Part shown: positions 31,805-52,239 of the stretch, one piece after another | Layout of the letters: each line of letters begins with the position of its first letter | Position numbering within the stretch: the first letter of the stretch is position 1 | Virus record (IMG/VR): IMGVR_UViG_3300010885_029854 | Span: 1 to 60,490 of that record | Direction: 5' to 3' (one strand) | DNA from: a virus | DNA: 60,490 nt | Notes under the pieces: model-generated | What the model saw: the letters and a program-made list of their open reading frames with translations, nothing else | Told to the model about the DNA's origin: nothing | Database searches by the model: none | Position numbers and translations under genes: made by a program

Positions 31805-31815
31805 ATTGAAATGAT

Positions 31816-32601: not shown

Positions 32602-32602
32602 A

Positions 32603-33160: not shown

Positions 33161-33178
33161 CGTTCACCTCTCAATAGT

Positions 33179-33207: not shown

Positions 33208-33208
33208 T

Positions 33209-35339: not shown

Positions 35340-35617
35340 TATTTAAACAACTTTTCAATTTCAGGTTTAGGTTGATTGCCTACCAAGGTAGAAGTTACTG
35401 CATTGTTTTTAATTTGAATCATACAGGGGATACCCCTAACGTTCATCTCTGTAGCTAGTTCAGGGTTCTGATCTACGTCCACCACATATACCACAACATC
35501 CGGATTATCTTTAGCTATCTCATCAAAGACTGGAGCAAGGGCTTTGCATGGGGGACACCATGTTGCAGTAAACCTAACAACCGCGTGAGTGTTATTCAGT
35601 AGTTCTGTTTTAGTCAC
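35339..35617 (-). CDS. Thioredoxin from internal GTG start (alternative product)
   Basis: AAAGGAG, six bases, then GTG at 35617 begins (M)TKTELLNNTHAVVRF, 92 residues ending at the fusion stop. It contains the WCPPC redox site. This is a standard thioredoxin length and would be cytoplasmic, unlike the membrane-anchored fusion. It might also serve a polymerase, as host thioredoxin does in T7, but that enzyme is family A, so this is only a thought. Confidence 0.5.
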   Translation of the reverse strand: MTKTELLNNTHAVVRFTATWCPPCKALAPVFDEIAKDNPDVVVYVVDVDQNPELATEMNVRGIPCMIQIKNNAVTSTLVGNQPKPEIEKLFK

Positions 35618-36106: not shown

Positions 36107-36359
36107 TATTATCCCTTTCATGATTACATTCACCACATACCGCCCTTAAGTTTACAAATGAGTTTCCTCCGCCTTTGCTTATTGGCACAATATGATCAGC
36201 CGTTAGCAAGTCAGTTCGCCATCTAGATTCATTTATTTGATTTCTATACAACGGAGCCTTGTAACAAAGCTCACATGTATATTTTCCAAACTTGTCAAAG
36301 TTTACTTGGAATAATCTTTTCTTATTCTTCTTGTAAGTTTGTCCGCCTCTTCTTGCCAT
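36096..36359 (-). CDS. Small HNH endonuclease
   Basis: 87 residues: YTCELCYKAPLY, LTADHIVPISKGGGNSFVNL and AVCGECNHERDN form a full HNH motif. Basic N-terminus. AGGAAA before the ATG. Small HNH proteins of this kind are often packaging-associated or homing enzymes. Confidence 0.85.
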   Translation of the reverse strand: MARRGGQTYKKNKKRLFQVNFDKFGKYTCELCYKAPLYRNQINESRWRTDLLTADHIVPISKGGGNSFVNLRAVCGECNHERDNNVD

Positions 36360-36471
36360 TTTTAATTTTCCTAGTATAATCTTTTTTAGATTTCATTACA
36401 GTGTTTGGTTTCTTGCATACAGGCTTCCTGATCTTTGGAGCAGGGATATAAATCTTATCCTTTAGTACCAT
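36322..36471 (-). CDS. 49-residue basic protein, HNH-associated type
   Basis: MVLKDKIYIPAPK to NLQEE, Lys/Arg-rich, with KPNTVMKSKKDYTRK resembling short basic proteins found in other phages. TGAGG lies 10 bases upstream. It overlaps the HNH start by 38 bases in another frame. Confidence 0.45.
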   Translation of the reverse strand: MVLKDKIYIPAPKIRKPVCKKPNTVMKSKKDYTRKIKNGKKRRTNLQEE

Positions 36472-36490
36472 ATATTGTCAACCTCAATTA

Positions 36491-36730
36491 TTATAGAGTC
36501 CAGTTCTTTTCTTTAACAATCTCAAAAATTCTGGTATGACAGTGTCCGTGAATAATTATAACGTTTGCTTGTTTCAACTTTTGTAAGTATCGCTGGGTTG
36601 ATTCTTTAGATAGACCTAGTTCCCATTGCATATCTTTGTTGTGAAATTCAGGATGATGCTTGGCATATGTATATAGTACAAATGCAATATACCCAAGTTT
36701 TTTAACTAGAAGCTTTTCATTCTCATTCAT
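36491..36730 (-). CDS. Winged-helix DNA-binding protein (paralogue 1)
   Basis: 79 residues with HNKDMQWELGLSKESTQRYLQKL as the HTH region, then a wing (ANVIIIHGHCHTRIFEIV). Similar layout and length to the 36891 gene on the other side of RNA 3. Likely a small transcription regulator of the phage. Confidence 0.65.
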   Translation of the reverse strand: MNENEKLLVKKLGYIAFVLYTYAKHHPEFHNKDMQWELGLSKESTQRYLQKLKQANVIIIHGHCHTRIFEIVKEKNWTL

Positions 36731-36746
36731 GTTAGTCCTTTTAAAA

Positions 36747-36882
36747 TGGTGAGCGGTGTCGGGCGCTACTCCGATCTATTGTCTCTACTGTGGAGTCCCA
36801 CCTGTTCGAGATCACTCTATTGTCTTTCGCCTGTGTCCCAGAGGAATCCGCATGCGTACCTTCAGCCTCACAGCTACCGCTC
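36747..36882 (-). ncRNA. tRNA-like RNA 3 with encoded CCA
   Basis: Minus strand: perfect 7-bp acceptor GAGCGGT/ACCGCTC, then A and CCA, bracketing 136 nt. The 5' side has a D-like AGC/GCT arm; inside are CGCATGCG, CCTCTGGGACACAGG and two AGACAATAGA copies. TCGG/CCGA forms a stem near the 3' end, but no TTCRA loop is present. It lies between two winged-helix genes and ends just before the next ribosome binding site, as RNA 1 does. Confidence 0.4.
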
Positions 36883-36890
36883 ATTAATAG

Positions 36891-37148
36891 TTAATGAAAC
36901 TTCCATGTTTCTTTTTGTTCATTCGATGAATACAAGAATCCTTTACAATATCTTAAGAATACTTTTTCTCTTGTAACAATACCACATTCAATTAAATTCT
37001 TTAAGATAACCTTTAGTTGTCTATCCGTCATTCCGGATTCTACTTCTAAATCTTTTAGAGATAGTTTTGAGTTATGTTTTAATGTTTGATAAACAAAAAA
37101 ACAACTAGGTCCAAGAGTTCTACCAATCTCAATTTCTAATTCGTTCAT
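36891..37148 (-). CDS. Winged-helix DNA-binding protein (paralogue 2)
   Basis: 85 residues. LSLKDLEVESGMTDRQLKVILKNL is a helix-turn-helix; CGIVTREKVFLRYCKGFLY resembles the wing. It shares its overall pattern (LGxxxFxxYxxxKH start, HTH spacing) with the 36491 protein, suggesting an old duplication with RNA 3 between. Confidence 0.65.
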   Translation of the reverse strand: MNELEIEIGRTLGPSCFFVYQTLKHNSKLSLKDLEVESGMTDRQLKVILKNLIECGIVTREKVFLRYCKGFLYSSNEQKETWKFH

Positions 37149-37155
37149 GATACTC

Positions 37156-37323
37156 CTAGTGTAGGATTCTAAGTTGAATAGTATCGCCTTTGAGTTCTAG
37201 TAAGAGAAGCTCAATTGCATTACCGATTTTTGTAACTTTGTCATTATCGTTCTCGGTAATAGCTAGGTCTAGTTGCTCAATCAAGTCATTGATACTTACT
37301 TCATAAGTAGCTAAGTTGTCCAT
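37156..37323 (-). CDS. 55-residue acidic helical protein
   Basis: MDNLATYEVSIND to LRILH. AGGAA ribosome binding site and an adjacent sigma70-type promoter. Helical acidic sequence (INDLIEQLDLAITENDND). Function unknown; first gene of the winged-helix operon. Confidence 0.6.
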   Translation of the reverse strand: MDNLATYEVSINDLIEQLDLAITENDNDKVTKIGNAIELLLLELKGDTIQLRILH

Positions 37324-37363
37324 GTTGCTATTCCTTTGTTTGGCTAAGTGCCGTTGGGTCTAT

Positions 37364-37391
37364 GTTATATTAAGTATGATATGATTGTCAA
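37364..37391 (-). promoter_or_regulatory. Sigma70-type promoter upstream of the winged-helix operon
   Basis: Minus strand TTGACA (37391-37386), 16 bp, TATAAC (37369-37364), about 40 bases upstream of the 37323 start codon and outside coding sequence. Confidence 0.6.
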
Positions 37392-37402
37392 TGTAAAGAT
37401 TA

Positions 37403-38011
37403 CTATCGCTTGTATAGATTACAGAGTTTATTAAATATTCTGGCGGTATTTAATGCGTCTGCTTCTGCCCAGTGCTTACCTTTGTTCTTACCTTTGTATC
37501 TAGTTCCTTTGAACTCTAGTCCGACCTTGGTCATAGAGGATGATAATCCTCCTTGTCGCTTCTTCCCATTCATCATAGCATATACCTGAAACAGGACTTT
37601 GACATTAATTGTAGACCTAGCGAATCCATAAACTAAGTTCATTGCTGTTTCTGTTAGCTCTGCTTGCTCTGTAATAAAAGTTACATCTCCGCTACCCCAT
37701 TCTACTAATTGTCTAGATGTATCAAATAGCTGTTGAAGATGTCTCAACCTAGTAACTGCATCAAGTGCTGAATTTTCAGATTCATTAACGTCCTCGTCTG
37801 TAATAGAGGTTAGAGTCTTGATAAAAGCAGACAGAGGATAATTGTAATTTATGTTCATTGTCTCGCTGTGTATGATAGTGGGTTCGTCTTCTGCTATTTC
37901 AAATACTACAATACCAACTTGAATTAGTTTGGGTACTATAGTAGCTGAGTCTTTTGTATCCTCTCTAGTGTAAGGTTGTTCTATTTCTGTATCTAGTGCA
38001 ATGAACCTCAT
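37403..38011 (-). CDS. DEDDh 3'-5' exonuclease (DnaQ/RNase T-like)
   Basis: 202 residues. FIALDTEIEQ (Exo I), LIQVGIVVFE, VEWGSGDVTFITEQ (Exo II region) and KHWAEADALNTARIFNKL (HxAxxDA, Exo III) define the DEDDh class. It probably acts on DNA or RNA ends. It is distinct from the DEDD exonuclease at 22.0 kb and from the polymerase proofreading domain. Confidence 0.8.
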   Translation of the reverse strand: MRFIALDTEIEQPYTREDTKDSATIVPKLIQVGIVVFEIAEDEPTIIHSETMNINYNYPLSAFIKTLTSITDEDVNESENSALDAVTRLRHLQQLFDTSRQLVEWGSGDVTFITEQAELTETAMNLVYGFARSTINVKVLFQVYAMMNGKKRQGGLSSSMTKVGLEFKGTRYKGKNKGKHWAEADALNTARIFNKLCNLYKR

Positions 38012-38012
38012 A

Positions 38013-38216
38013 CTATTTGTCCTTATAATCTTTTTTACTTATTTCTTTTACTGATTTATATATAAAGGGAATAGTTATTAAACATCCTAATATATATAAC
38101 TCTGTATTACTAGTTGAAATCAAATATGGTATACCCCACATAAAAATCATCAATATGATTAGTGCTTGTATAAATATTTTATTTAAAAGCGTAGGGATTT
38201 TCTTTCCATTATACAT
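38013..38216 (-). CDS. Small membrane protein
   Basis: 67 residues with two hydrophobic segments (IFIQALIILMIFMWGIPYLI; LYILGCLITIPFIYKSV) and charged ends. Overlaps the upstream Cys-rich small gene. Function unknown. Confidence 0.6.
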   Translation of the reverse strand: MYNGKKIPTLLNKIFIQALIILMIFMWGIPYLISTSNTELYILGCLITIPFIYKSVKEISKKDYKDK

Positions 38217-38350
38217 TTAGTTAAAGCTTCTTGTTTTTTTAAAGTAATTGTTTTTACACTCACACAATGAACATATGATTGTTGACATCTTAATTTTTCA
38301 TCTGAGCTTGGTAGGTTGCATAGCAAAGCGATTGCAATAAACATTTCCAT
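38183..38350 (-). CDS. 55-residue Cys-containing small protein with hydrophobic N-terminus
   Basis: MEMFIAIALLCNL to KSLRF. AGGAAG site upstream. The N-terminus is a weak signal peptide/membrane segment, followed by four cysteines (CNLP, RCQQ, HCVS, KCIM). Overlaps the next gene by 34 bases. Confidence 0.5.
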   Translation of the reverse strand: MEMFIAIALLCNLPSSDEKLRCQQSYVHCVSVKTITLKKQEALTKCIMERKSLRF

Positions 38351-38364
38351 AATTACTTCCTATA

Positions 38365-38754
38365 TTAGTTAGGTTCACAACTTAATAGATGAACTCTATT
38401 GTGGTTATGTCGTTTTTCTAAATGATAAAACATCCCCGTATCATCCTTTAATGTTATGACTGTAGTGCCTGAGTGATCCTCATTAGATACTACAGTTAGT
38501 ACAGTAGGTTTCATTCTTGACTTAGAAAGTTCTCGACCTGTTTTTTTATTATAGTTTTCTTTATCAGAGCATCTAGCTTTACCTACTAACTTTGTAAAGA
38601 AGTCATCAGGCTTAAGGTCTTTTATGAACCAGTCATTAAGTTCTTCCATTGCAATAGTTTGGCCGCCTGTTGCTGATAGTTCAAGTTCATAAAAAATTAT
38701 GAGTATAGTTTCAACTTTACTAATTTTTCTCAAATGATAATACTGTATATTCAT
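38365..38754 (-). CDS. Hypothetical protein, 129 residues
   Basis: Beta-rich C-terminal half (TVVSNEDHSGTTVITL; MFYHLEKRHNHNRVHLL). ATGA overlap with the cytochrome gene. No recognised motif. Confidence 0.65.
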   Translation of the reverse strand: MNIQYYHLRKISKVETILIIFYELELSATGGQTIAMEELNDWFIKDLKPDDFFTKLVGKARCSDKENYNKKTGRELSKSRMKPTVLTVVSNEDHSGTTVITLKDDTGMFYHLEKRHNHNRVHLLSCEPN

Positions 38755-39089
38755 TTCTTTGTACTCCTGATATAGTTATATATCAAATCAGTCTTGGTTG
38801 TCAAGCTAGGAAATTTCTGCATAGCTTTCGTGTGTCTCTTGGGTTTGTACCCGCTCGGGTAAGTTCCATACGGCACCTTTGTTCTGAATACGTCTGACGG
38901 GGTAGTGATAAGTTCTGGACCCATTGATCCTGGTTTACTTGGCTGAGAGTTATGACAGCTAACACAATATAATACATATAATCTTTTACCTTCAATGTGT
39001 TGAACTTTATCAGTTGGAATAGTAGTAGATGCTTTAACGCATTGAGATAGAATTAAAAATACAATAAGTATAGATAATAATCTAATCAT
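38751..39089 (-). CDS. Exported c-type cytochrome
   Basis: 112 residues. The signal peptide is LLSILIVFLILSQCVKAS, with likely cleavage near KAS. The mature protein has GKRLYVLYCVSCHNSQPSKP, where CVSCH is the haem-attachment motif. GSMGPEL and a Met (KAMQKFP) suited as the distal haem ligand follow. This is a class I cytochrome c layout, about 93 residues mature. Haem attachment would need the host Ccm machinery in the periplasm. Start coupled to the upstream gene (TAATG). A cytochrome in a phage is unusual. Confidence 0.8.
   Translation of the reverse strand: MIRLLSILIVFLILSQCVKASTTIPTDKVQHIEGKRLYVLYCVSCHNSQPSKPGSMGPELITTPSDVFRTKVPYGTYPSGYKPKRHTKAMQKFPSLTTKTDLIYNYIRSTKK
38775..38804 (-). 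promoter_or_regulatory. Sigma70-type promoter within the end of the cytochrome gene
   Basis: Minus strand TTGACA (38804-38799), 18 bp, TATAAC (38780-38775), upstream of the 38754 gene. It lies in the last cytochrome codons, so it is less certain than the intergenic ones. Confidence 0.5.
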
Positions 39090-39406
39090 TATCCCCTCAA
39101 CTCATAGAAGCTATTCTCTGTTTCAATCTTAAAGCCGCCGTCTATTTTTGTACAGGATAATACTGGACTAGTTTTAAACCAGTTGGACGGGCTAGATAAA
39201 AAAATCCATACATAGTTATCTTGTGCTAAGATTGTGACATTTCCTGTCCCGCAATCCATAGTGTCGCCGTATCCATGAGGAGATGCATTCTTTGCTCCAG
39301 TCTTTTGTAAAGTATACATAACGTTACCTTTGATCTTATTAAGTCCAGTAGCTCTAGCTAGGTTCTTAGCATTCTCTTTGTCTTGAACATGTGGATGAAT
39401 TTTCAT
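39089..39406 (-). CDS. Hypothetical protein, 105 residues
   Basis: MKIHPHVQDKENAK start; later HGYGDTMDCGTGNVTIL and a beta-rich C-terminus. AGAGG site. Coupled to the cytochrome gene by TAATG, so possibly functionally linked. No family recognised. Confidence 0.6.
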   Translation of the reverse strand: MKIHPHVQDKENAKNLARATGLNKIKGNVMYTLQKTGAKNASPHGYGDTMDCGTGNVTILAQDNYVWIFLSSPSNWFKTSPVLSCTKIDGGFKIETENSFYELRG

Positions 39407-39422
39407 TTAGCGACCTCTGAGT

Positions 39423-40049
39423 TTATAGCTCAACAGTTATTGGGTTGTAGATAACATCTGAATATGGTATACCACAAATAGAAGCATTAACTGTTAACAC
39501 TCCGTTACGTAATAGAGTACCACGGCTTTCATGTATGTGTCCAGTAACATGTAGCTTTAAATTGCTAAGCTCGTCTAGTCGGTGAGCTAATGCTGTGCTA
39601 CCTACCTTACCATTCGGACACCAGTCGAGTCTATCGTAAGCCGGTCCATGTGTTATTACTATATCAGTAGTGGGTGAGATATGATCATACAAGTTAGCTA
39701 AGCCCGTTTCGTCTAGTCCGTATGCCCAGTCTCCAAACTTCTTAGAGTAGGGAGACCCCCAGATTGTAAACCCTTCTATTACAGTATGGGTATTACATAG
39801 CAACTGAATGCCTTGATTCTCGCATAGTGACTTGAGTAGGTCACCTTGTCGGGTAATCCATTTCTCATGGTTACCACATATTAGAATCTTATGCTTGGCT
39901 TTCTGTTCTCCATACCATATAAGAAACTTTTCTACTTCGTCTAGCTCTCCGTGATATGTAAAGTCCCCAGCGCATATAATCATATCAGTGCTAGGCATCT
40001 TGATCTTCTTATGATGTTGATGAGTATCAGAAATGCATGTAATCTTCAT
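39423..40049 (-). CDS. Calcineurin-like metallophosphoesterase
   Basis: 208 residues. ISDTHQHH (D-x-H), ICAGDFTYHG (GD), ICGNHEKWI (GNHE), VITHGPAYDRLD and HVTGHIHESRG (GHxH) are the five metal-binding motifs. Hydrolyses a phosphoester; nucleotide, RNA 2',3'-cyclic phosphate or signalling nucleotide substrates are possible. Good AGGAAG site. Confidence 0.88.
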   Translation of the reverse strand: MKITCISDTHQHHKKIKMPSTDMIICAGDFTYHGELDEVEKFLIWYGEQKAKHKILICGNHEKWITRQGDLLKSLCENQGIQLLCNTHTVIEGFTIWGSPYSKKFGDWAYGLDETGLANLYDHISPTTDIVITHGPAYDRLDWCPNGKVGSTALAHRLDELSNLKLHVTGHIHESRGTLLRNGVLTVNASICGIPYSDVIYNPITVEL

Positions 40050-40050
40050 A

Positions 40051-40254
40051 TTATTCTTCCTCCCATCTATTCCCTATCAAATCTAAACTTGTATCGCTCT
40101 CATATTGATCTACAAAAGGAGGCAACATGCCAAGAGCTTCTATTCTCTTAAGTATTCTTTCAGCATCTTGCTCATCTCTACCGTCATCGCAATAGTGATT
40201 ACCAGTTAGGCGCAGTACGTTTATGATGTTCTCTATTGCTACACTTCTTTTCAT
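40051..40254 (-). CDS. Small acidic protein, tandem paralogue A
   Basis: 67 residues, MKRSVAIENIINVLRLTG start, EALGMLPP in the middle and a WEEE end. The neighbouring 66-residue protein has MKRSEALEEI, ESIGMLPP and WEDE at equivalent places. TAATG coupling to the other copy. Confidence 0.7.
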   Translation of the reverse strand: MKRSVAIENIINVLRLTGNHYCDDGRDEQDAERILKRIEALGMLPPFVDQYESDTSLDLIGNRWEEE

Positions 40255-40454
40255 TACTCATCCTCCCAGGAGTTAGGGTTGTACCCTCCCGGTTCATCCC
40301 CAGAATAGTAGGTTTCTGTATAGTCTGGAGGAGGAAGCATACCAATACTTTCCACAGTATGTAACAACGCTTCTTCCAGTTCTCCCATTCCATCATCCTT
40401 GCCATTCATAGCAAGTATCTTGCGTATTTCTTCTAGTGCTTCAGATCTTTTCAT
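40254..40454 (-). CDS. Small acidic protein, tandem paralogue B
   Basis: 66 residues, homologous along its whole length to the 40051 protein (MKRS start, GMLPP core, W-E-acidic end). Coupled on both sides by TAATG. The tandem copy implies duplication; function unknown. Confidence 0.7.
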   Translation of the reverse strand: MKRSEALEEIRKILAMNGKDDGMGELEEALLHTVESIGMLPPPDYTETYYSGDEPGGYNPNSWEDE

Positions 40455-40867
40455 TAGAAGTCAACCCTTAGTGAGTGAGTAATAATTCCAAACGATATCA
40501 AATTATCAATAGATATATTGTTTGTCAATTTAATTCTATAGTCTATCCCTATGACTGGGGTAATTCCGAGTACAGAAGGTGGTTCAATGTTTAGTTTATT
40601 GAATTCTTTAAAGTTTGTATTATAGAATCCAGCTATGAAATCAAAATCCTCTGCAATGTTTACAGAAGAGATTGGTCCTACTATGTTTCCACATGCAGAA
40701 TCTTTTCCTGCGATTGCACCTATCTTATATTCCTTTGTTCCAACTAATCCAATAACATATTCATTGTGGATAGTTCCAAACAGGCTATCTCCAATACGAT
40801 TGCAATAAGGTAAGTTAGAAGCGAGATAGTGATGAGTGATACCGCCGTACAATAAAGATAAAACCAT
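40454..40867 (-). CDS. Beta-barrel-like protein without signal peptide
   Basis: Start at 40867 (MVLSLLYGG) with GGAGAG 5 bases upstream rather than 40891. 137 residues of alternating hydrophobic/polar strands (YVIGLVGTKEYKIGAIAG; GITPVIGIDYRIKL), ending SLRVDF with a terminal Phe as in outer-membrane barrel beta-signals. No export signal is visible. Similar terminal strands occur in the small FRLxF proteins at 46-49 kb. Confidence 0.55.
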   Translation of the reverse strand: MVLSLLYGGITHHYLASNLPYCNRIGDSLFGTIHNEYVIGLVGTKEYKIGAIAGKDSACGNIVGPISSVNIAEDFDFIAGFYNTNFKEFNKLNIEPPSVLGITPVIGIDYRIKLTNNISIDNLISFGIITHSLRVDF

Positions 40868-40907
40868 GTTCTCTCCACTTGTTAAATCCATGTTATTTTA
40901 TTATGTT

Positions 40908-41105
40908 TCAATTATTTTCATCTCCAAGAATACTATATATACTTTCTTTTAATTCATCAATGGTGATGTTTTTTCTATCATCATGTTTAAATTTACGAAT
41001 ATAGTTTTCAATTTCATTTAATTTATATGCATTAGATGAAGCTTTTTGAAATAATTCTAATTCATATTTATCTTCATAAGGATCAAACTCATATATAATT
41101 TTCAT
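40908..41105 (-). CDS. Conserved phage small protein (YEFDPYED type)
   Basis: Start at 41105 (MKIIYEFDPYEDKYELELF), overlapping the upstream stop as TAATG. 65 residues. The opening YEFDPxED resembles small proteins found in many phages with no known role. Helical middle (LNEIENYIRKFK). Confidence 0.65.
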   Translation of the reverse strand: MKIIYEFDPYEDKYELELFQKASSNAYKLNEIENYIRKFKHDDRKNITIDELKESIYSILGDENN

Positions 41106-41566
41106 TATGACCATGCCGGTTGTCGCTTATCTTGATCCCAACGATCATTAAGATAAAGTTGATAAGCTAAATATATATCATCGACACTGGTATAGTCAAT
41201 GCCTTTTTCTTTTGATCTAGCACAATTACTAAATGGTAGTAATCCAATGTTTGGTAATAGGTCTTCATTGCCTATCATGTTGTATAACATTTTAACACAG
41301 GCATGTTCTTTTCCGTATATGCGATTATACTCTGAGCATAGAGCTACCGCATGTTCCCACAACCATATCCAGTTTTGTTTAGACTGTCTAGCCCAAATTG
41401 AACAAGGGTGATTAAGATGTGCAGTCTTATATCCTGTATGAATTCCGTGAACATTCAATGCAGTTGCTAGCATTTGAGTAGACTCTAGTGCCATTTTAAT
41501 CTTACGTTTATCGTCTAGGAACTTAGCTGATTCTGTTGGGCAAGAAGAAGTTACAAATATATTCAT
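41105..41566 (-). CDS. Conserved phage protein (DDKRxxKMxLExxQML type)
   Basis: 153 residues. LDDKRKIKMALESTQMLATA near residue 17, then HLNHPCSIWARQSKQNWIWL and RIYGKEHACVKM. This layout recurs in phages and is sometimes linked by annotators to pyrimidine-dimer glycosylase-like folds. I treat the function as unknown. Downstream of RNA 4. Confidence 0.6.
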   Translation of the reverse strand: MNIFVTSSCPTESAKFLDDKRKIKMALESTQMLATALNVHGIHTGYKTAHLNHPCSIWARQSKQNWIWLWEHAVALCSEYNRIYGKEHACVKMLYNMIGNEDLLPNIGLLPFSNCARSKEKGIDYTSVDDIYLAYQLYLNDRWDQDKRQPAWS

Positions 41567-41587
41567 GATACTCCTTTAGGATTTAAG

Positions 41588-41675
41588 GGCTGTCGCGATA
41601 CATTTATCTTCCCTGCCCGCGTATTTGTGGAAGCACCCAACCATTATCTAGAATGAAGCCGCCATTACGACAGCC
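41588..41675 (-). ncRNA. Structured RNA candidate 4 (long terminal stem)
   Basis: Minus strand: perfect 8-bp GGCTGTCG/CGACAGCC encloses 72 nt, with a D-like hairpin AATG/CATT and GATA/TATC near the 3' end. No CCA and no T-loop, so the tRNA likeness is weak. It follows the ribonucleotide reductase stop and precedes the next gene's AAAGGAG, the same placement as RNAs 1-3. Confidence 0.35.
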
Positions 41676-41684
41676 GCATGGCTC

Positions 41685-43538
41685 CTATAAATCTATACTG
41701 CACTGTCCTCCAGCGCAAGCTAATTGCTCTGCTCGATTTGTATTATCTTCCATCTCCATTACCTTTGTCAAGTCAATATCTTTTACCATCGCATCAAACT
41801 TATGAAAGGTTGCTTCGTCGCATCCCTCGAAGGGTGCTTGTTGGTAAATCGTATCGCTTGCTGGTAGCAATGCAACTGCTGCATATGATTCTCTATCTTG
41901 CCATAGCTTGATCTTAAGTAGCTCGGTTTCTTCTGGTCGGTAGTTAATAGTACAACTTACGTTGTGTGTATTAACTCCTGACCTATGACCAGGCACTACC
42001 CAGTTCTCGTAGTATAGTTTGACTCTATCGAATAGCTCTATAGCTGACTCGTTGTTACGTAACACTGCCCCTGCTGGTGACTCTTGTGGGATGGTGACTA
42101 CTACTCCAGTCTGAGAGAATAGGTCAGCTTCTACAAGCTCAGGACATACTCTTGTGAGATACTTAGCTAGTTCGTCGTCTCGGTTCATTCTTACTCGTCT
42201 GAGGTAAAATTGATCATGCCTTGCATGGATTCCACTGCTTGATCCGAGAACACATGATGCAGTTCCTTCAGGCTTAATAGCAGTAGCCCTTGCTGCCTGG
42301 TTGATCCCGAGTTTTTTTGAATACTTAGTATTAACTTCGAGAACTGTTCTTGCAGATTTTCGGAGGCTTTCGCCAGACAGTAAGCTTGAGTCAGCAATCC
42401 CAGTAAAGCTACATCCGATAAGGGCTTCTTCCTCCGTGACTTTTTTCCACCTTTCACTGAGGTACGGGAAGTCCGTGTAGCTTGCTTGGAGCGTTCCGAG
42501 GAAGCTTGCTGCGTAGATGCGGTTATCGAAGTCTTTTTCATTCTTAATTCCTGTTAAGTTTGTAGTAGTTAGGTTACAGAACTGGTTAGACTGTAATCCG
42601 ATCTCTGCACATGGGTTTGTTCCCCACTCTGGATCGTTTGTCCAGAAGAATCCCGGCTCTCCAGCGTTAGATGCGATACATTGGTCGTATACATGGTAGA
42701 ATTCTTCCATACTAACCTGTCCACGTATTAAAACCGCTGAATTGTTAGCACGAGCACGGTGAGGATGCTTCTCCCACCAGTTTCCATGCTTTGAAGTTAA
42801 CATTCTACTGCTAGTTCGGTCGAAGAGACTAATAAGTGCTGCTCTACGTATGCCTCCAGCTAGTACACAGTCTGCAATCAAACAAATTATGTCATGAGTC
42901 TCTAGATCATTAAGCTTTCTACCAATACAAGTCTTTAGTATCGTCTCTACCTTACCCAGCATCTGTCGAAGCGGTTCAGGACCGGGGGCTTTTGCTCCTG
43001 TTGTTACAAGATAGCTACCTTTTTGGCGAACAAGACTAAGATCGAACAGTGGACGGATGGCTCCATAGAAGTATGCCTCCATTAATCGGTTTAATGCTTC
43101 AGCCCAACCCTCAATACTATCATGAACTACGTATGTTCCCTCTTCTTTAGGGAGTTTAATGCTAGGTAGTTGTGAAATGTGACTTCCTTGTACAGAGAAG
43201 CCGAAGCCTGTACCTGACAGAAGCAAATACAGGGCTTCTGCGAAAACTCTGACGTATTTAATATGAGCAAAGCTACAATTGAATAGCCTTACGTTGTTCT
43301 TAGTGATTGCTTCTCCTCCAAACTGAAGAGATCGCATACTTGGCATAACCTTTAGATCATGTACTTGCTTATATGCTTTAATGATATCTCGACTTAAGGT
43401 TGGGAACTTATCAAGATGCATTGTCATGTTACGATTGATTGTTTCGGCTAAGCTTTCTCTTCGACTAGCGTGAGATAAATACTTAGCGTATGTACGATAA
43501 GCAACTAGTTCTGCCAATAGACGATTCGATTTATTCAT
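41685..43538 (-). CDS. nrdJ: Class II (adenosylcobalamin-dependent) ribonucleotide reductase
   Basis: 617 residues. Reduces ribonucleotides to deoxyribonucleotides. FNCSFAH has the first redox Cys near residue 88. NPCAEIGLQSNQFCNLTTTN holds the catalytic NPC-x-E core and second redox Cys. A C-terminal CAGGQC pair shuttles electrons. The monomeric ribonucleoside-triphosphate reductase type fits, though it is about 120 residues shorter than the Lactobacillus enzyme. It needs host cobalamin. Genes for a class I small subunit or an activase are absent. Confidence 0.9.
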   Translation of the reverse strand: MNKSNRLLAELVAYRTYAKYLSHASRRESLAETINRNMTMHLDKFPTLSRDIIKAYKQVHDLKVMPSMRSLQFGGEAITKNNVRLFNCSFAHIKYVRVFAEALYLLLSGTGFGFSVQGSHISQLPSIKLPKEEGTYVVHDSIEGWAEALNRLMEAYFYGAIRPLFDLSLVRQKGSYLVTTGAKAPGPEPLRQMLGKVETILKTCIGRKLNDLETHDIICLIADCVLAGGIRRAALISLFDRTSSRMLTSKHGNWWEKHPHRARANNSAVLIRGQVSMEEFYHVYDQCIASNAGEPGFFWTNDPEWGTNPCAEIGLQSNQFCNLTTTNLTGIKNEKDFDNRIYAASFLGTLQASYTDFPYLSERWKKVTEEEALIGCSFTGIADSSLLSGESLRKSARTVLEVNTKYSKKLGINQAARATAIKPEGTASCVLGSSSGIHARHDQFYLRRVRMNRDDELAKYLTRVCPELVEADLFSQTGVVVTIPQESPAGAVLRNNESAIELFDRVKLYYENWVVPGHRSGVNTHNVSCTINYRPEETELLKIKLWQDRESYAAVALLPASDTIYQQAPFEGCDEATFHKFDAMVKDIDLTKVMEMEDNTNRAEQLACAGGQCSIDL

Positions 43539-46346: not shown

Positions 46347-46544
46347 CTACTCCATTGTAAAGATTAATCTAAATTCATTTTTATTTGTTTGATTATTATT
46401 TGCAACCAAGTTATTATATCCACTTGCTCTAAAGTCTGGATTGCTACCTAATCGGTGTAGTTTTTTATCATTGGTATACAAAAGGAATGTATCTTTCCAT
46501 TGGTCGTCAACTGAGTAGTCATTTGTGAATTGAGCAATAATCAT
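46347..46544 (-). CDS. FRLxF-family small protein e
   Basis: Start at 46544 (MIIAQFTNDYSVD) with AGGAGATTACAA upstream; the frame open to 46592 lacks this site. 65 residues. Ends NEFRLIFTME. It shares the MIIxQF start and F(R/K)LxF end with the small genes at 47147, 47806, 48637 and 48810. Looks like a short beta-hairpin protein. Confidence 0.6.
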   Translation of the reverse strand: MIIAQFTNDYSVDDQWKDTFLLYTNDKKLHRLGSNPDFRASGYNNLVANNNQTNKNEFRLIFTME

Positions 46545-46560
46545 TTGTAATCTCCTTATA

Positions 46561-46740
46561 TTATCTTCGACACAATAGCAATAGAAGGACAACTGCTGGA
46601 AATAGAAAGGTTCCTATGGTTAGTAATGCAAACTGTATTACAACCAAAACTCCTTTTAACATTACATTACCAGCTAGGCTAACCCCTAGAAATCTAACCG
46701 CAAACAATGTGATACTTAATACGAAAAGAATTACTACTAT
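46561..46740 (-). CDS. Two-segment membrane protein with apparent ATA start
   Basis: A 59-residue open frame of almost entirely hydrophobic residues (VVILFVLSITLFAVRFLG; VLVVIQFALLTIGTFLF; PAVVLLLL) ending CRR. No ATG, GTG or TTG is available near the start, but GGGAGG lies six bases before an ATA codon at 46740. Either a rare ATA start or an alternative start is used. Confidence 0.4.
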   Translation of the reverse strand: MVVILFVLSITLFAVRFLGVSLAGNVMLKGVLVVIQFALLTIGTFLFPAVVLLLLLCRR

Positions 46741-47138
46741 CGTATACCTCCCTGAATTAAATTATATAACACTATATAGCAAACACCATGAAGTAATTGA
46801 TCTAATGCAATGAAATTATAGAACCATCTATCATCATAGTAAGTAAACAGTTCCAAATGTTTGAATCTTTTCTTAACAGTGTAAGCATACAGTTTCCAAA
46901 TGTTCCAATCAATGATACCATGTAGTATACAATTAGCAACCGCAAAAACAAAAGCCTGTTTATGATTTAGACCAGCTGCAAATAATCCCCACAACATTAG
47001 ACCAATATATATAAGGAACAGATGAGGGAATAAGTATTTGAAATTGTGAGATTTGTTTTTAGCAGTTTCGCGATCTTGAAGAAGCCAATCGAATACAACA
47101 TGAACGATCATCAATGTTACCAGAGATGATACTGACAT
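46737..47138 (-). CDS. DUF3307-like integral membrane protein
   Basis: 133 residues. MIVHVVFDWLLQDRETA, FPHLFLIYIGLMLWGLF, NCILHGIIDWNIW and LDQLLHGVCYIVLY show four membrane segments with the H-xxx-D and H-GIIDW pattern typical of DUF3307 proteins. AAGGAG site. Role unknown. Confidence 0.65.
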   Translation of the reverse strand: MSVSSLVTLMIVHVVFDWLLQDRETAKNKSHNFKYLFPHLFLIYIGLMLWGLFAAGLNHKQAFVFAVANCILHGIIDWNIWKLYAYTVKKRFKHLELFTYYDDRWFYNFIALDQLLHGVCYIVLYNLIQGGIR

Positions 47139-47146
47139 ACTACTCC

Positions 47147-47299
47147 TTATTCAAAGATTAATTTAAATCCTGCCATATTAGGTGGGTAACTCCAGTGTCT
47201 ACTTTTATGCTGGAACATGCTATAATTGTAACTTATTCCAAATATATATGTACCATTATTTATTCCAAAATCATCATGCGACGTTTGAATTATTATCAT
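47147..47299 (-). CDS. FRLxF-family small protein d
   Basis: 50 residues, MIIIQTSHDDFGI to GFKLIFE. GGAGATCAT site; the start overlaps the end of the metallopeptidase gene. Alternating beta pattern (GTYIFGISYNYS) and a terminal FKLIFE strand relate it to the other members. Confidence 0.55.
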   Translation of the reverse strand: MIIIQTSHDDFGINNGTYIFGISYNYSMFQHKSRHWSYPPNMAGFKLIFE

Positions 47300-47813
47300 A
47301 TGATCTCCTTATGTTCATTTCATACTTAGCAATTAAATAACACTTAACATAGTCTAACTCTTTATCAAAACTAATATCGTCATCACAAAAGAACTTAACA
47401 GCCGCAACAACTTCCATCCATGGAATAACCATATCGTTAGTATAGTTCTTGCTGATACCATCTTCAATAACAATAGAGGTATATTTGTTTAGTAGTCCTA
47501 GCTTTGCACAAGCAACCATCGTACATATCTCAGCGATACATTCTTCCATCTTGAATGCCATTGAGTTTTCTTTATATACTTCATTGCCATAAACCTTAAG
47601 CAATCTTTCGATTCTATTTGTTCTCTTTGCTACAAACGTAGAATGAAACATTTCATGTAAGATAATAATCTTTTGCATTACAGGGAACTCGTTTATTACA
47701 GTAGTGTCTACTATGATAACATCTCGTTTTGAATCGTACAGTCCTACTGATCCTGTAGGTTCTATATCATCAGTAACAATCCCAACATCAAACTTGCTGA
47801 ATAAATTATACAT
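47274..47813 (-). CDS. HExxH zinc metallopeptidase-like protein
   Basis: 179 residues. IIILHEMFHSTFVAKRTNR near residue 51 is an HExxH motif; MEECIAEICTMVAC about 35 residues later supplies a likely Glu third ligand (gluzincin-like). No signal peptide. Within the amidoligase/ATP-grasp cluster it might process peptides or proteins. Start overlaps FRLxF-family gene c. Confidence 0.7.
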   Translation of the reverse strand: MYNLFSKFDVGIVTDDIEPTGSVGLYDSKRDVIIVDTTVINEFPVMQKIIILHEMFHSTFVAKRTNRIERLLKVYGNEVYKENSMAFKMEECIAEICTMVACAKLGLLNKYTSIVIEDGISKNYTNDMVIPWMEVVAAVKFFCDDDISFDKELDYVKCYLIAKYEMNIRRSYDNNSNVA

Positions 47814-47925
47814 AGCGTATCTCCAGTCTAAATGAAGTTAAGGCTCCGCCTATCTTACAATACTTTGCAGCTTGAAAGTTATAATCACCTCCGACAATTC
47901 GCATAAGAATATTATACTGAAACAC
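47806..47925 (-). CDS. FRLxF-family small protein c (GTG or internal ATG start)
   Basis: From GTG at 47925: (M)FQYNILMRIVGGDYN to LTSFRLEIRYV, 39 residues; from ATG at 47904 it is 32. It aligns with gene b: QxxxxMRxxGxxxxxQxAxY, then CKxG, then SFRLE. It overlaps the end of the ATP-grasp gene and the start of the metallopeptidase gene. No strong ribosome binding site. Confidence 0.45.
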   Translation of the reverse strand: MFQYNILMRIVGGDYNFQAAKYCKIGGALTSFRLEIRYV

Positions 47926-48640
47926 ATAAGTAATTTTTGATTTCATCTACCCACCTTTTTATATTAGAACTATTCAATCCTGGAGCTGAGTTAACCTCAC
48001 ATACAAAGAAGTTCTTATCCTTATCTCTAATTAAATCTACCCCCCCGCATAATAAACCGAGGGCATTTACAGCCTGAATGCAAATTTCTTGGGCATTCTG
48101 GTCGACGCGACTAATTAGCGGATCGCACCTAACGAACTTACACGTATCAGACTTGAACAATGCGGGTCTACCCTCAGCATTAGGAATCTTTTCGTAAATT
48201 CCTATAACCTTACTATTGAAAACATGAACACGATACTCTCTACGTTTTAAAGGAATCGGTTTAGTATAATAAGAGTCACTGATTGGATTATAATCATTAG
48301 CATATCTAACAATCCCAGACTTACTTCTTATATATAAATTACCAGTATCATCTTTATGCGAATCAATTAGCTGAATGTCTGTATCAAATAAAGGTACAGG
48401 TACATTAGCAGAAGATAAAGCTCTAAGCATTTCTAATTTGTTTACAGTCCTTTTAACTGATTCTAATGAGTTTAATTGTTTAACACTTGTCAATGATGTA
48501 AACTCCTCAGTATTACCCCATCTAATAAATAGATCACACTTAGCTTTCCTAGGAGTCACCTTTCTCTTTCCTTCTAGTGCAAGCTTGAGAGCTTTACCTG
48601 TAACGCAAGACCTATCAGAGTAGGCAATGAATACTTTCAT
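47912..48640 (-). CDS. ATP-grasp ligase
   Basis: 242 residues. KLEMLRALSSANVPVPL (start of the ATP-grasp fold), EYRVHVFNSKVIGIYEK, and GGVDLIRDKDKNFFVCEVNSAPGL, where Asp, Glu and Asn bind Mg-ATP, mark a RimK-like ATP-grasp carboxylate-amine ligase. The family activates a carboxylate as acyl-phosphate and joins it to an amine. ATGA-coupled to small protein b, and in the same operon as the amidotransferase and amidoligase, suggesting one pathway. Confidence 0.82.
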   Translation of the reverse strand: MKVFIAYSDRSCVTGKALKLALEGKRKVTPRKAKCDLFIRWGNTEEFTSLTSVKQLNSLESVKRTVNKLEMLRALSSANVPVPLFDTDIQLIDSHKDDTGNLYIRSKSGIVRYANDYNPISDSYYTKPIPLKRREYRVHVFNSKVIGIYEKIPNAEGRPALFKSDTCKFVRCDPLISRVDQNAQEICIQAVNALGLLCGGVDLIRDKDKNFFVCEVNSAPGLNSSNIKRWVDEIKNYLCVSV

Positions 48641-48813
48641 ACAAACTCCAATCTAAATGTTGAGAAGTAGTTCTCACGTAACCCAGTGTCTACGCTCATA
48701 TGCTCACCAGTTTTGCATACAGCCCGAGGACTTGAATCGGAATATCTTGCGAACTGCCAAGTTAACGTGGTTCCAAATACTCTCATAGCACTTCCGAATT
48801 GTATAATCCTCAT
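48637..48813 (-). CDS. FRLxF-family small protein b
   Basis: 58 residues, MRIIQFGSAMRVFG to YFSTFRLEFV. VCKTGEHMSVDTG in the middle closely matches VCKTGQYLHLNLN of protein a. ATGA overlaps on both sides (upstream with protein a, downstream with the ATP-grasp gene) show a tightly coupled set. Confidence 0.65.
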   Translation of the reverse strand: MRIIQFGSAMRVFGTTLTWQFARYSDSSPRAVCKTGEHMSVDTGLRENYFSTFRLEFV

Positions 48814-48977
48814 ACAAACCTCAGTCTAAACGTAGTAAAGTATTTGTCACTATTTAAATTAAGATGTAGGTATTGACCAGTTTTACATACAGCCGTTTCG
48901 TGCTTAACTTTTGTAAACTGTCCAATAATTGCACCGTCATAAGCTGACATCGTATATCCAAATTGTAGAACACTCAT
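48810..48977 (-). CDS. FRLxF-family small protein a
   Basis: 55 residues, MSVLQFGYTMSAYD to YFTTFRLRFV. Clear paralogue of protein b (QFGxxM start, AVCKTG middle, YF(T/S)TFRL end). GAGG and the stop of the amidotransferase gene lie just upstream. Confidence 0.65.
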   Translation of the reverse strand: MSVLQFGYTMSAYDGAIIGQFTKVKHETAVCKTGQYLHLNLNSDKYFTTFRLRFV

Positions 48978-48978
48978 G

Positions 48979-50208
48979 TTACCTCGCTATTGTTTTTACA
49001 TTACATAATTCAGCAATAAGTTGTCGTGCTTCCTTGAATCCTCTCATGAAGTCGGTCTCTCTGACATACTCTTTTAAATCTTCAGGCAAAGATTCATAAT
49101 CACAAGTGTAATTTTTATTGTATACAATATCAAATACATCTAGTCTATCAATGAAGGCCTCTGATTCAGTCTCGCAATACTTCTTAACCTTACGGAAATC
49201 AATGCGTCCTTTTGCATCTACCAAGTCAGGGAATACATCTGAATTATCCATGCTACACATTAGCAATTGATTGTTGTACTCAACATCTTTCTTACTCATC
49301 TCAGTAGATTTGCTAAAGGGAGTTGACTGACTACTAATCCCAGCCTTCCCACTCTGATAGTTAGACCCCATATAGTTGTAACTTGTATTATAATGAGGGT
49401 TGACGAATACCTTAGCAGGCTTAACATCAATCGTTTCAAGTAACTCGCCACTGATTGCATCAAATCTAAACATTGAATCCATATCTAATAGAGTAGGTTC
49501 TGTTAACAAATTAAGAGACATATCCTTAGCAATAGAGATAAGATCATCTTTGTCAGTAACAAAGACACTACCCAGTCCCTCAACTTGAGAATGGAATAAC
49601 GAACTCGTCCCCCGCACAACATCAAGAATCCTCTTATTATTAGAATCTCTACTAATAATACCAAAAGCCCATGAGCCATTAAGCATATCAAGCCATCCCT
49701 TAGCTTTATTAGTTTCAAGGGGTACTCCACTGTTAAGATATGTTTGTAATGCAGCCTCACTATCGCAAGAGCTAATCTTATTTACATTTAACTTATCGGC
49801 GTTACGAATTGTTCCGTTATGAACTAGAGAAGTATCTCCAAAGATAAATGGGTGAGTATTAGCAAACTCTTTACCACAAGTAGCAAACCTAGTGTGCATT
49901 GTAACAGAAGTCATATCACTCATGTCAATATCGCCACGTTGATCGTAGTTAGTATTCAATGCACCATAAGGCAATCTATTCTTATAAGCAATTAACTCAC
50001 TAGCAATTGCAGGAACCATTACAGAATTGTATTCCATAAATGATTCATTGTTATGCCAACGCTCAGAGAATAGACTTCCGTCAGACTTTACAGCCGTATA
50101 CCCAATACCATCTCTGTTAGACCTAGACATAGGAATACTAATCCTAGACATAAATTCTTTTGCCACTAAAGGCTCAGTGATACCAGTCATTAGTAATAAT
50201 TTACACAT
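48979..50208 (-). CDS. Class II glutamine amidotransferase (Ntn)
   Basis: 409 residues. Cys2 directly after Met (MCKLLLMTG) is the N-terminal nucleophile. MHTRFATCGKEFANTHPF and LVHNGTIRN match the GATase II glutamine pocket, and MLNGSWAFGI is the conserved Ntn strand. It releases ammonia from glutamine, probably for the neighbouring ligases. The ~170-residue C-terminal part is not a phosphosugar isomerase or synthase domain known to me. Confidence 0.85.
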   Translation of the reverse strand: MCKLLLMTGITEPLVAKEFMSRISIPMSRSNRDGIGYTAVKSDGSLFSERWHNNESFMEYNSVMVPAIASELIAYKNRLPYGALNTNYDQRGDIDMSDMTSVTMHTRFATCGKEFANTHPFIFGDTSLVHNGTIRNADKLNVNKISSCDSEAALQTYLNSGVPLETNKAKGWLDMLNGSWAFGIISRDSNNKRILDVVRGTSSLFHSQVEGLGSVFVTDKDDLISIAKDMSLNLLTEPTLLDMDSMFRFDAISGELLETIDVKPAKVFVNPHYNTSYNYMGSNYQSGKAGISSQSTPFSKSTEMSKKDVEYNNQLLMCSMDNSDVFPDLVDAKGRIDFRKVKKYCETESEAFIDRLDVFDIVYNKNYTCDYESLPEDLKEYVRETDFMRGFKEARQLIAELCNVKTIAR

Positions 50209-50474
50209 TAATTAGTCCTTTGATTTAAAATTTCAAGAGCTGCACAATACCTTTCTCCCCATCCAACAACCTGAATAAACCTATAATTTTTGGAGATAGT
50301 TGACCCGTTACAATACAGATCATCGCAATCAAACTCTGGTTCCTCAACTGACTTTATATAAATTGTTGTCCCATTCACTTCGACCTCCTCAGTACGAAAC
50401 TTAATCTTTGTGTTGTGTAACTGCATTATTTCTATAGCGTCTCCAATCTTAAAATAAAAGTATGGCACTAACAT
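50208..50474 (-). CDS. Small protein between amidoligase and amidotransferase
   Basis: 88 residues, starting at an ATG that overlaps the amidoligase stop and ending at a TAATG with the amidotransferase. Beta-rich; FIQVVGWGERYCAALEILN near the end resembles FQAAKYCKIGGALTSFRLE of protein c. It has DCDDLYCNG in the middle. Possibly a longer substrate-like relative or an adaptor. Confidence 0.6.
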   Translation of the reverse strand: MLVPYFYFKIGDAIEIMQLHNTKIKFRTEEVEVNGTTIYIKSVEEPEFDCDDLYCNGSTISKNYRFIQVVGWGERYCAALEILNQRTN

Positions 50475-51916
50475 ACGTGAGCAATTGTTACAGATTGAAA
50501 TTTTTCAATACGAGAGTCTACATAACTCAGAGAATCAGCAGGAATTAAAATATTGGTGGCCGCGACTAATTCCCTTGCCGTTCTGAATTTGTTTACAGGA
50601 ATCTCAACATTACATGATGCAATCGAATCAAGAAACATAGCCCAGTTTACAATACCCTTAACATCTACAGTCCCCTCATGAATACGAACCTCAATTGTTG
50701 TATGCTTCTCGTATGAGTTAGGATTCACAACTAGATACCTACTGTTCTCATTAGCAAACTCGTCGGACTTGTTAGGCTTACAATGAGTATTCTTTAATCG
50801 TCCGATAGGCTGGGCACCTCTTAGAATATCCTGAACTCTTACTAGATTTCTAAAGCAAGAAACGTAATCTCGATTTCTCATATCAAGATGCACATGGGTT
50901 CCACAAGATCGGTTAGCATATCCGTCAATCAATGGGTTATTTAATACAGTCTCAAGTCTACTCATTACACTCTCTAGCTCAGTAGTTTTTGCAATGATCT
51001 GTAGCTCAGCAGTACCATACCCACTATTATGACAAGCACGTAAAGAACCATCACCCTCTACTCGAATGTTTTTATGTAGACGTTTCTCAATTAATAGACG
51101 ACGCAAATCCTTATCGTTACCAGAATAAATAAACTCAACCTCTACGCCTACATATGTAGCATTTGGATCGCTAGGTTTTTTGTAATCATTCAATGACTCA
51201 GTAAGGCTTGCCTCAAAAGCCTTAAGTAATTCCCCAGAATTAACGAATGTCCCGCCGCAGTATTTAACATTAGTTCCAAACGCATTATAGTCTGAAGCAT
51301 TAACTCTATTTTTCAATCGTAAGATTCTAAGCTTACCAACCAACAATCTTTTAAATGATGCAATTGATTCATCTGATTCATCAGGTACTTCAGAAGGATC
51401 TAATTTAATAGTGATACGCTGCTTAGGAAGATACACACTTGCCTCTCCAACTAGAGGGATAGTTCCCTTAAGCTCACCTCTAAGGATTCTAATTTGTTTC
51501 CAGTTAGCAACCATCTCAGGTTGGATACGTGACAAGCCTTGAGCCTTAAGCTTTCTTCTATCCTCAAACAAGTCGGCAATCATTTGAGTTTTATTTTTAA
51601 CTGTGCTACTTAAAACATAATTGAGTGTTGTCTTTGTATTAGCATGAACCAAATCATCTAGTGGAATAAATGCTTGACCCTCACTGGTGACACTCTTAAC
51701 ACCTTTCAAATCTTTCATTAGTTCTTCAGCATTAGTAAGACTTACCCATGCACACATACCTCGGTGAGAGTCAGATGAGATACTGATTACTTTCCAGATA
51801 GCATTTTTAAATATACCAATATAACCTAATGACCCATACATTTGTTGAGGGTCACACGTCTCACCAAAAATCTCAGGATTAATTTTAACTAGAGAGTCTA
51901 CGCCAATTGTTTTCAT
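50468..51916 (-). CDS. Amidoligase_2-type carboxylate-amine ligase
   Basis: The start at 51916 (MKTIGVDSL) has GGAGTAAAC upstream and is preferred to 51940. 482 residues. The C-terminal half has YVGVEVEFIYSG, IRVEGDGSLRAC, RSCGTHVHLDMR and HTTIEVRIHEGTVD, the glutamine-synthetase/GCS-like signature of the predicted amidoligase superfamily that links amines to carboxylates. The N-terminal ~240 residues are less conserved. Together with GATase II and ATP-grasp it resembles predicted peptide-modification operons. Confidence 0.82.
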   Translation of the reverse strand: MKTIGVDSLVKINPEIFGETCDPQQMYGSLGYIGIFKNAIWKVISISSDSHRGMCAWVSLTNAEELMKDLKGVKSVTSEGQAFIPLDDLVHANTKTTLNYVLSSTVKNKTQMIADLFEDRRKLKAQGLSRIQPEMVANWKQIRILRGELKGTIPLVGEASVYLPKQRITIKLDPSEVPDESDESIASFKRLLVGKLRILRLKNRVNASDYNAFGTNVKYCGGTFVNSGELLKAFEASLTESLNDYKKPSDPNATYVGVEVEFIYSGNDKDLRRLLIEKRLHKNIRVEGDGSLRACHNSGYGTAELQIIAKTTELESVMSRLETVLNNPLIDGYANRSCGTHVHLDMRNRDYVSCFRNLVRVQDILRGAQPIGRLKNTHCKPNKSDEFANENSRYLVVNPNSYEKHTTIEVRIHEGTVDVKGIVNWAMFLDSIASCNVEIPVNKFRTARELVAATNILIPADSLSYVDSRIEKFQSVTIAHVC

Positions 51917-51924: not shown

Positions 51925-52239
51925 CTATGCTATATTCCAATTAATATTATCATTTTCCTCATCAAAATTAACGTCCATACTTATTAGGGTATATTTTAAA
52001 TTCCTTCTAACCATATACCCACGATTGTCATCTGCTAAGTAATCATCGAAGCTATCGAAATAGGATACGCAAGGCTTATCAATGTAGATAGAATCACCTT
52101 CGTCATCATCTCCATCATAAAATTCATTCTCCGTATCTTCGTCATCTAATATAAACCACTTACCTACCATTGTTCTACCAGATCTATCGTCCGAATCCTC
52201 TGTATGATTATGAAATTGTATAAGTGTAATTGTTCTCAC
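51925..52239 (-). CDS. Acidic protein with GTG start
   Basis: The frame is open to 52383 but overlaps the next gene there. GAGGAG seven bases before GTG at 52239 gives (M)RTITLIQFHNHTEDSD, 104 residues, ending NINWNIA. Strongly acidic middle (DDEDTENEFYDGDDDEGD). First gene before the amidoligase. Unknown function. Confidence 0.6.
   Translation of the reverse strand: MRTITLIQFHNHTEDSDDRSGRTMVGKWFILDDEDTENEFYDGDDDEGDSIYIDKPCVSYFDSFDDYLADDNRGYMVRRNLKYTLISMDVNFDEENDNINWNIA

What the first reader, a model, noticed from the sequence alone, without database searches (positions are those of the whole stretch)
46347..51916. Amidoligase, GATase II, ATP-grasp and metallopeptidase interleaved with tiny repeated proteins: a candidate peptide-modification system
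Seen: an Amidoligase_2-like gene, a class II glutamine amidotransferase with Cys2, a RimK-like ATP-grasp ligase and an HExxH protein lie in one minus-strand operon with stop/start overlaps. Between them are small related proteins (a, b, c, d, e) and an 88-residue protein. Known: ATP-grasp and amidoligase enzymes form amide bonds on peptides, often using small gene-encoded substrates beside them. Inferred: the small proteins are substrates or scaffolds. The product might modify a host peptide, cell-wall precursor or virion protein.
Basis: partly seen in the sequence, partly recalled or inferred. Interest (0 to 1): 0.88.

Follow-up and report, generated by a model that had tools for sequence, protein, structure and literature searches.

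The report
Phage amide-ligase cassette with tiny proteins
An uncultivated phage carries a known type of three-enzyme amide-bond-forming gene set, and the tiny proteins wedged between the enzymes are a fast-changing family whose shared ends double as ribosome-binding sites for the next gene, so the shared ends by themselves do not show that the tiny proteins are the enzymes' substrates.

Summary
One minus-strand operon encodes Amidoligase_2, a class II GATase with Cys2, a RimK-like ATP-grasp and an HExxH zincin, with small proteins between them. Active-site motifs are conserved across relatives. The trio is a known phage set, called a "peptidoglycan modification cassette" in the literature. This version adds an ArdC/polyvalent-type zincin, has an ATP-grasp without the GHSGxGI loop, and shows neither a second ligase nor a cyclotransferase.

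The small proteins are new to the databases. a and b are paralogues, c looks like a truncated b, d has a positional counterpart in L013, and e fits by motif and position only. Small proteins with the N-terminal motif MxIxQ cluster around the cassette in four of four related phages. They are absent from seven RNR-related phages without the cassette. They evolve faster than the enzymes.

Their shared C-terminus is largely explained by DNA: it encodes the Shine-Dalgarno sequence of the next gene. The same device appears in unrelated small-protein families of Citrobacter phage CVT22 and other phages.

I read them as diversifying accessory proteins riding in the operon with built-in ribosome-binding sites. 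A partner or substrate role is not excluded. New variant of a known kind.

The parts
51925..52239 (-). 104-aa protein upstream of the amidoligase; N-terminus MRTITLIQFH fits the MxIxQ motif; membership of the small family unproven
50468..51916 (-). Amidoligase_2 enzyme (482 aa): about 240-aa N-terminal extension, then the ligase domain; conserved ExE, DGS, HVHxD, ExR
   Evidence: Pfam and PHROG hits; residues invariant (G265 E267 E269 D297 S299 H349 H351 R381 N406 E417 R419, numbered from the 490-aa TTG start)
50208..50474 (-). 88-aa protein between amidoligase and GATase; no database match
   Evidence: dN/dS 0.20 against L002
48979..50208 (-). class II glutamine amidotransferase (409 aa), N-terminal Cys2; HTRxAT, HNG and CDSE conserved
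48810..48977 (-). small protein a (55 aa), ends FTTFRLRFV; tail contains GAGG in front of the ATG of b
48637..48813 (-). small protein b (58 aa), paralogue of a, ends FSTFRLEFV; tail contains GGAG in front of the ATP-grasp ATG
47912..48640 (-). RimK-like ATP-grasp ligase (242 aa); Mg ligands D202, E215, N217 kept; GHSGxGI loop missing in the whole clade
47806..47946 (-). small protein c (46 aa, or 39 aa from 47925), probably a truncated b-like copy; tail contains GGAG in front of the zincin ATG
47274..47813 (-). MPTase-PolyVal zincin (179 aa), HExxH plus downstream EE; homologues directly after ATP-grasp in L015 and L016
47147..47299 (-). small protein d (50 aa), MIIIQ...FKLIFE; L013:1589-1774 is in the same position
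46737..47138 (-). DUF3307 membrane protein (133 aa)
46347..46544 (-). small protein e (65 aa), MIIAQF...FRLIFTME; member by motif and position only

Best explanation
Two things are interleaved. (1) The enzymes form a phage amidoligase-GATase II-ATP-grasp cassette. The GATase would release ammonia from glutamine, and the two ligases would activate carboxylates with ATP and form amide or peptide bonds. The target is most likely a peptide in the host cell envelope or another small peptide; this is inferred and no step of the chemistry was shown. (2) The tiny proteins are a lineage-specific, fast-evolving family of small, predicted all-beta accessory proteins. They sit in the operon as translation-coupled units: the last strand of each protein is encoded by DNA that also serves as the Shine-Dalgarno site of the following gene, so a copy can be gained, lost or swapped without silencing the enzyme downstream. 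The double coding is shown by codon and spacing data. The idea that the proteins are independent effectors, such as counter-defence or host-modulating proteins, and not ligase substrates is inference.
For: Enzyme families and conserved active sites. The same gene set is described in podoviruses as a peptidoglycan modification cassette (PMC5498523; PMC10580990). Tails: in a, b, c and three L013 proteins the tail carries GGAG or GAGG a few nt before the next ATG, and the L-E residue is coded YTG-GAG; where another Shine-Dalgarno site exists (d, e) the E is replaced by I (ATC). In CVT22, 18 of 18 tail LENE/LENK motifs use GAG for the first Glu against 41% GAG elsewhere, and 15 of 19 tails lie 6-11 nt before the next start. 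Fast evolution against the 97-99%-identical relative L002: a, b, d, e dN/dS 0.25-0.70 and dS 0.26-0.50; the four enzymes dN/dS 0.07-0.11 and dS 0.05-0.12 (pooled Fisher test p 2e-8). The same cassette with a non-homologous small family: L015/L016, CVT22.
Against: The MxIxQ family clusters only around the cassette in four genomes and is missing from seven cassette-less relatives, which is what a functional partner would also show. Structure models are weak (pLDDT 67 and 72, no firm fold match), so the all-beta statement is tentative. The small-gene slots also have raised dS, so part of the divergence may be recombination rather than selection.
Confidence: 0.6

Rival explanations
1. The small proteins are dedicated substrates, carriers or adaptors of the ligases (the first reader's reading, in the manner of LysW with LysX, Pup with PafA, or graspetide precursors): a ligase joins amino acids or another protein to them.
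For: Two or three copies always sit between GATase and ATP-grasp in the MxIxQ clade; family and cassette occur together in 4 of 4 genomes and are absent together in 7 of 7 (Fisher p 0.003 ignoring kinship); termini conserved, middle variable.
Against: The same cassette occurs with unrelated small families or with no shared family. C-terminal conservation is accounted for by the Shine-Dalgarno site and is lost in L011 and L014. No acceptor residue is shared by all members. The co-occurrence sample is small and phylogenetically dependent.
Confidence: 0.2
2. The small genes are merely debris or selfish duplications of an ORF-plus-ribosome-binding-site unit, without function for the phage.
For: Tail families recur in unrelated phages; c looks like a truncated copy.
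Against: Reading frames stay open in both near relatives with dN/dS of 0.25-0.70, below 1; several copies are kept in every clade member.
Confidence: 0.12
3. The operon is a counter-defence island: zincin of the polyvalent/ArdC type, small inhibitors, and ligases that modify a host defence or surface protein.
For: Zincin matches MPTase-PolyVal and an anti-restriction PHROG and follows ATP-grasp in three lineages; such zincins are typical of counter-defence polyvalent proteins (PMC5512222); the small genes diversify fast.
Against: No enzyme matches a defence family (PADLOC); no direct evidence of a defence target.
Confidence: 0.3

Closest known systems
Phage amidoligase / GATase II / ATP-grasp set ('peptidoglycan modification cassette' of RIO-1, phiEco32, LUZ24, PA11 and relatives; PMC5498523, PMC3890496)
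   Same: Same three enzyme families, contiguous, in the early or DNA-metabolism part of a tailed phage, with small unknown genes between them.
   Different: No second COOH-NH2 ligase, GATase I or gamma-glutamyl cyclotransferase recognised in the operon; zincin added; ATP-grasp lacks the GHSGxGI loop; amidoligase has a long N-terminal extension.
Zobellviridae phage CVT22 cassette with LENE-tailed small proteins (KP774835)
   Same: Interleaved multiplied small proteins with a common C-terminus that encodes the next gene's Shine-Dalgarno site.
   Different: The small proteins are 63-118 aa, often begin with a GDxV stretch, and are not alignable with MxIxQ; copies also lie outside the cassette, near DNA polymerase.
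Start-Associated Sequences of cluster K mycobacteriophages (PMC3203893)
   Same: A repeated ribosome-binding-site-like element in front of many phage genes.
   Different: There the element lies upstream of start sites as a 13-bp DNA repeat; here it is coded into the end of the upstream protein and travels with small genes.
ArdC / polyvalent-protein zincin (MPTase-PolyVal)
   Same: HExxH zincin matching MPTase-PolyVal.
   Different: Stand-alone 179-aa protein without the ArdC-N DNA-binding domain.
LysW/LysX carrier system and Pup/PafA (from general knowledge)
   Same: Small protein of about 55-65 aa beside a RimK-like or GS-like ligase.
   Different: No conserved C-terminal Glu/Gln acceptor across the MxIxQ family; no modification shown.

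Membership tests
Phage amidoligase-GATase-ATP-grasp cassette | Amidoligase_2, class II GATase and RimK-like ATP-grasp adjacent in one operon | tested here: met
Phage amidoligase-GATase-ATP-grasp cassette | Active-site residues of the three enzymes conserved | tested here: met
   exception: Gly-rich GHSGxGI loop of ATP-grasp missing in this clade
Phage amidoligase-GATase-ATP-grasp cassette | Fuller form with a second COOH-NH2 ligase and gamma-glutamyl cyclotransferase, as in RIO-1 and phiEco32 relatives | tested here: not met
   None recognised among the proteins of 46-52 kb; one or both are annotated in most of L003-L008; the core trio is met, the fuller form is not
Phage amidoligase-GATase-ATP-grasp cassette | Modifies peptidoglycan or surface peptides and blocks superinfection | not testable with these tools
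MPTase-PolyVal zincin | Pfam model match above the gathering score and HExxH with a third ligand downstream | tested here: met
   29.2 bits against a cut-off of 27.5; H53 E54 H57 and E90/E91 invariant in four homologues
ArdC | N-terminal ssDNA-binding ArdC-N domain fused to the zincin | tested here: not met
   Only the zincin is found in the 179-aa protein
Carrier or ubiquitin-like tag (LysW, Pup) | Conserved C-terminal acceptor residue used by the ligase | tested here: not met
   C-termini differ among members (V, E, L, R, T, N, K ...) and vary between clade members
RiPP precursor of the graspetide type | Conserved leader followed by a repeated Thr/Ser/Lys-Asp/Glu core | tested here: inconclusive
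   Short conserved N-terminus MxIxQ but no repeated core seen; best ATP-grasp hits are the RimK families, with MvdC and grasp-with-spasm only weak

The most novel reading that the evidence does not exclude
The lineage-specific small families are obligate working partners of the cassette: rapidly diversifying carrier or adaptor proteins on or with which the amidoligase and ATP-grasp act, replaced wholesale between phage lineages while the enzymes stay.
Probability: 0.15. Interest if true: 0.85.

Novelty: new variant of a known kind. Interest (0 to 1): 0.5.

Why it matters
The function of the phage amidoligase cassette has been open since it was predicted, and its small companion genes have drawn little attention in the papers found here. 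The data give a concrete handle. A tiny-protein family comes and goes with the cassette among close relatives, and a simple double-coding trick (the next gene's ribosome-binding site inside the previous protein's tail) would let phages insert and swap small genes in an operon without breaking the genes downstream. It also warns annotators that a shared C-terminal tag on phage small proteins can be a translation signal rather than a protein motif.

Tried and rejected
DNA-level search of the phage collection with the whole operon found nothing. tblastn with the zincin in phage records found nothing. Small family against Pfam, PHROGs and PDB sequences: no credible match. Pup- or LysW-like C-terminal tag: considered strongly after seeing LENE tails in CVT22, rejected as the main reading because the tail codons follow Shine-Dalgarno needs and tails vary between relatives. 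A tail-sharing association specific to cassette phages: 8 of 76 cassette loci (6 or so distinct phages) against 3 of 139 control loci, but one cassette-less phage (L207) also has a tail set, so it is not treated as specific; control loci are not matched. Structure: two AlphaFold2 models (pLDDT 67, 72) are all-beta; the first resembles SH3 folds weakly (Z at most 4.6, no Foldseek E below 0.7), the second does not; no fold is claimed. Genome-contig scan gave only distant ATP-grasp relatives in MAGs; no host was identified. One profile built from all small proteins scored d and e well only because they were in the seed; leave-one-out removed that support.
Full report
OBSERVATION. The window is a 60,490-base IMG/VR virus record with a phage large terminase, a family B DNA polymerase, a DnaB-like helicase and a B12-dependent ribonucleotide reductase (RNR). 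The operon lies on the minus strand. From upstream to downstream it is: 104-aa protein, amidoligase (482 aa), 88-aa protein, class II GATase (409 aa), small a, small b, ATP-grasp (242 aa), small c, zincin (179 aa), small d, DUF3307 membrane protein, a 48-aa hydrophobic ORF, small e. Enzyme assignments come from Pfam and PHROGs. Stop and start codons overlap or nearly touch throughout.

ENZYMES. Alignment with phages phiM6, CVT22, two oyster-associated phages, Vibrio 172P1 and Escherichia phage Paul, and with uncultivated relatives at 40-62% ATP-grasp identity (L011-L016; alignments 48, 51-53), shows that the expected catalytic residues are kept. For the amidoligase these are ExE, DGS, HVHxD and ExR; for the GATase Cys2, HTRxAT, HNG and CDSE; for the ATP-grasp the Mg ligands D202, E215 and N217 and basic residues R105, R137 and K151. 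One real difference: the whole clade lacks the GHSGxGI loop of other phage ATP-grasp enzymes, so its nucleotide handling may differ. The zincin is conserved at the same place in L015 and L016. The set is known: it is called a peptidoglycan modification cassette and proposed to change the host surface against superinfection (PMC5498523; PMC10580990; LUZ24-like gene table in PMC3890496). That function is a hypothesis in those papers. The primary paper cited for it (Iyer et al. 2009) was not available here.

SMALL PROTEINS: WHAT THEY ARE. Leave-one-out profiles and shuffles show that a and b are homologous to each other and to L013 proteins. c resembles b, d resembles L013:1589-1774 (both lie just before the DUF3307 gene), and e is not supported by alignment. 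A loose N-terminal motif, M-x-I-x-Q-[aromatic or hydrophobic], marks about 10-14 small proteins in L011/G001 against about 1 expected, 7 in L014/G003, 4 in L013/G002 and 4-5 in the window. Genome-wide these lie within about 10 kb of the cassette; elsewhere hits are at chance level. The motif also selects some unrelated short ORFs, so counts are approximate.

CO-OCCURRENCE. A scan with the RNR found phages 62-78% identical in that protein. Twelve of these contigs have no ATP-grasp of this clade and no Amidoligase_2 above the cut-off. Seven of them, read over 60-80 kb, have no cluster of MxIxQ proteins, whereas all four genomes with cassette and related RNR do. Fisher p is 0.003, but the genomes are related and few. 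The neighbouring small genes of the island are mostly missing too, so this shows linkage to the island rather than proof of partnership. L015 and L016 have the cassette but a different multiplied small family ending in IGEV-like tails around it.

TAILS. In a, b, c and three L013 proteins the shared FRLEFV/FKLEFI end reads ...YTG GAG TTY...ATGA (AGG in a), that is a GGAG or GAGG a few bases before the next start; in d and e, which have GGAG elsewhere, the codon is ATC. CVT22 gives the statistics: first Glu of LENE/LENK is GAG in 18 of 18 tails (background 232 of 563), last Glu GAA in 16 of 18, spacing 6-11 nt to the next start in 15 of 19. Where the tail is not used (SLINE, TTAGAG) the GGAG is lost; QLENE, with no annotated gene within 100 nt downstream, keeps it. 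Other loci show FKGNK, VERLV, xENK and KAQEK tails with the same logic. The tail is therefore doubly constrained: hydrophobic strand residues at protein level, Shine-Dalgarno at DNA level.

EVOLUTION. Against L002 the four enzymes are 97-99% identical with dN/dS 0.07-0.11; a, b, d and e are 69-85% identical with dN/dS 0.25-0.70 and with raised dS. This fits exchange by recombination of small-gene alleles plus relaxed or diversifying selection; with two sequences these cannot be separated.

MECHANISM. I consider it most likely that the enzymes amidate or extend a peptide, probably in the cell envelope, and that the small proteins are separate, rapidly changing effectors kept in the same operon by translation coupling. 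Shown: gene content, conserved active sites, double-coded tails, fast evolution, clustering. Inferred: substrate of the ligases, role of the small proteins, role of the zincin. The substrate or partner reading keeps about 0.15-0.2.

LIMITS. Structure models were too weak to name a fold. The window and its clade are metagenomic, and no host was found. The gene caller used in scripts is simple, and small-ORF counts include spurious frames.

Noticed in passing
L010 (Citrobacter phage CVT22, KP774835.2) 28002-43249, minus strand: About 19 small proteins of mostly 63-118 aa, many starting with a GDxV-type stretch, end in LENE or close variants; the tail encodes the Shine-Dalgarno site of the next gene.
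   Followed up: yes
L038:12292-13590, L027:3341-12000, L075, L082/L084: Further multiplied small-protein sets with shared C-termini (VERLV, FKGNK, xENK, KAQEK) in phages with the ATP-grasp gene, including proteins with unrelated bodies.
   Followed up: partly
L207 (cassette-less phage contig): Five small ORFs with loosely shared tails of the SLExELL type; possible further case of the tail device without the cassette.
   Followed up: no
window 35339-36106, minus strand: Protein with a HExxH-like segment (FHELGHC) followed by a thioredoxin-like domain with CPPC; unusual fusion in a phage.
   Followed up: no
window 40051-40454, minus strand: Two adjacent small paralogues starting MKRSEAL/MKRSVAI (66 and 67 aa), another tandem duplication outside the cassette.
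   Followed up: no
window 47912-48640 and relatives L011-L016: ATP-grasp clade without the GHSGxGI glycine-rich loop although the metal ligands are kept.
   Followed up: partly
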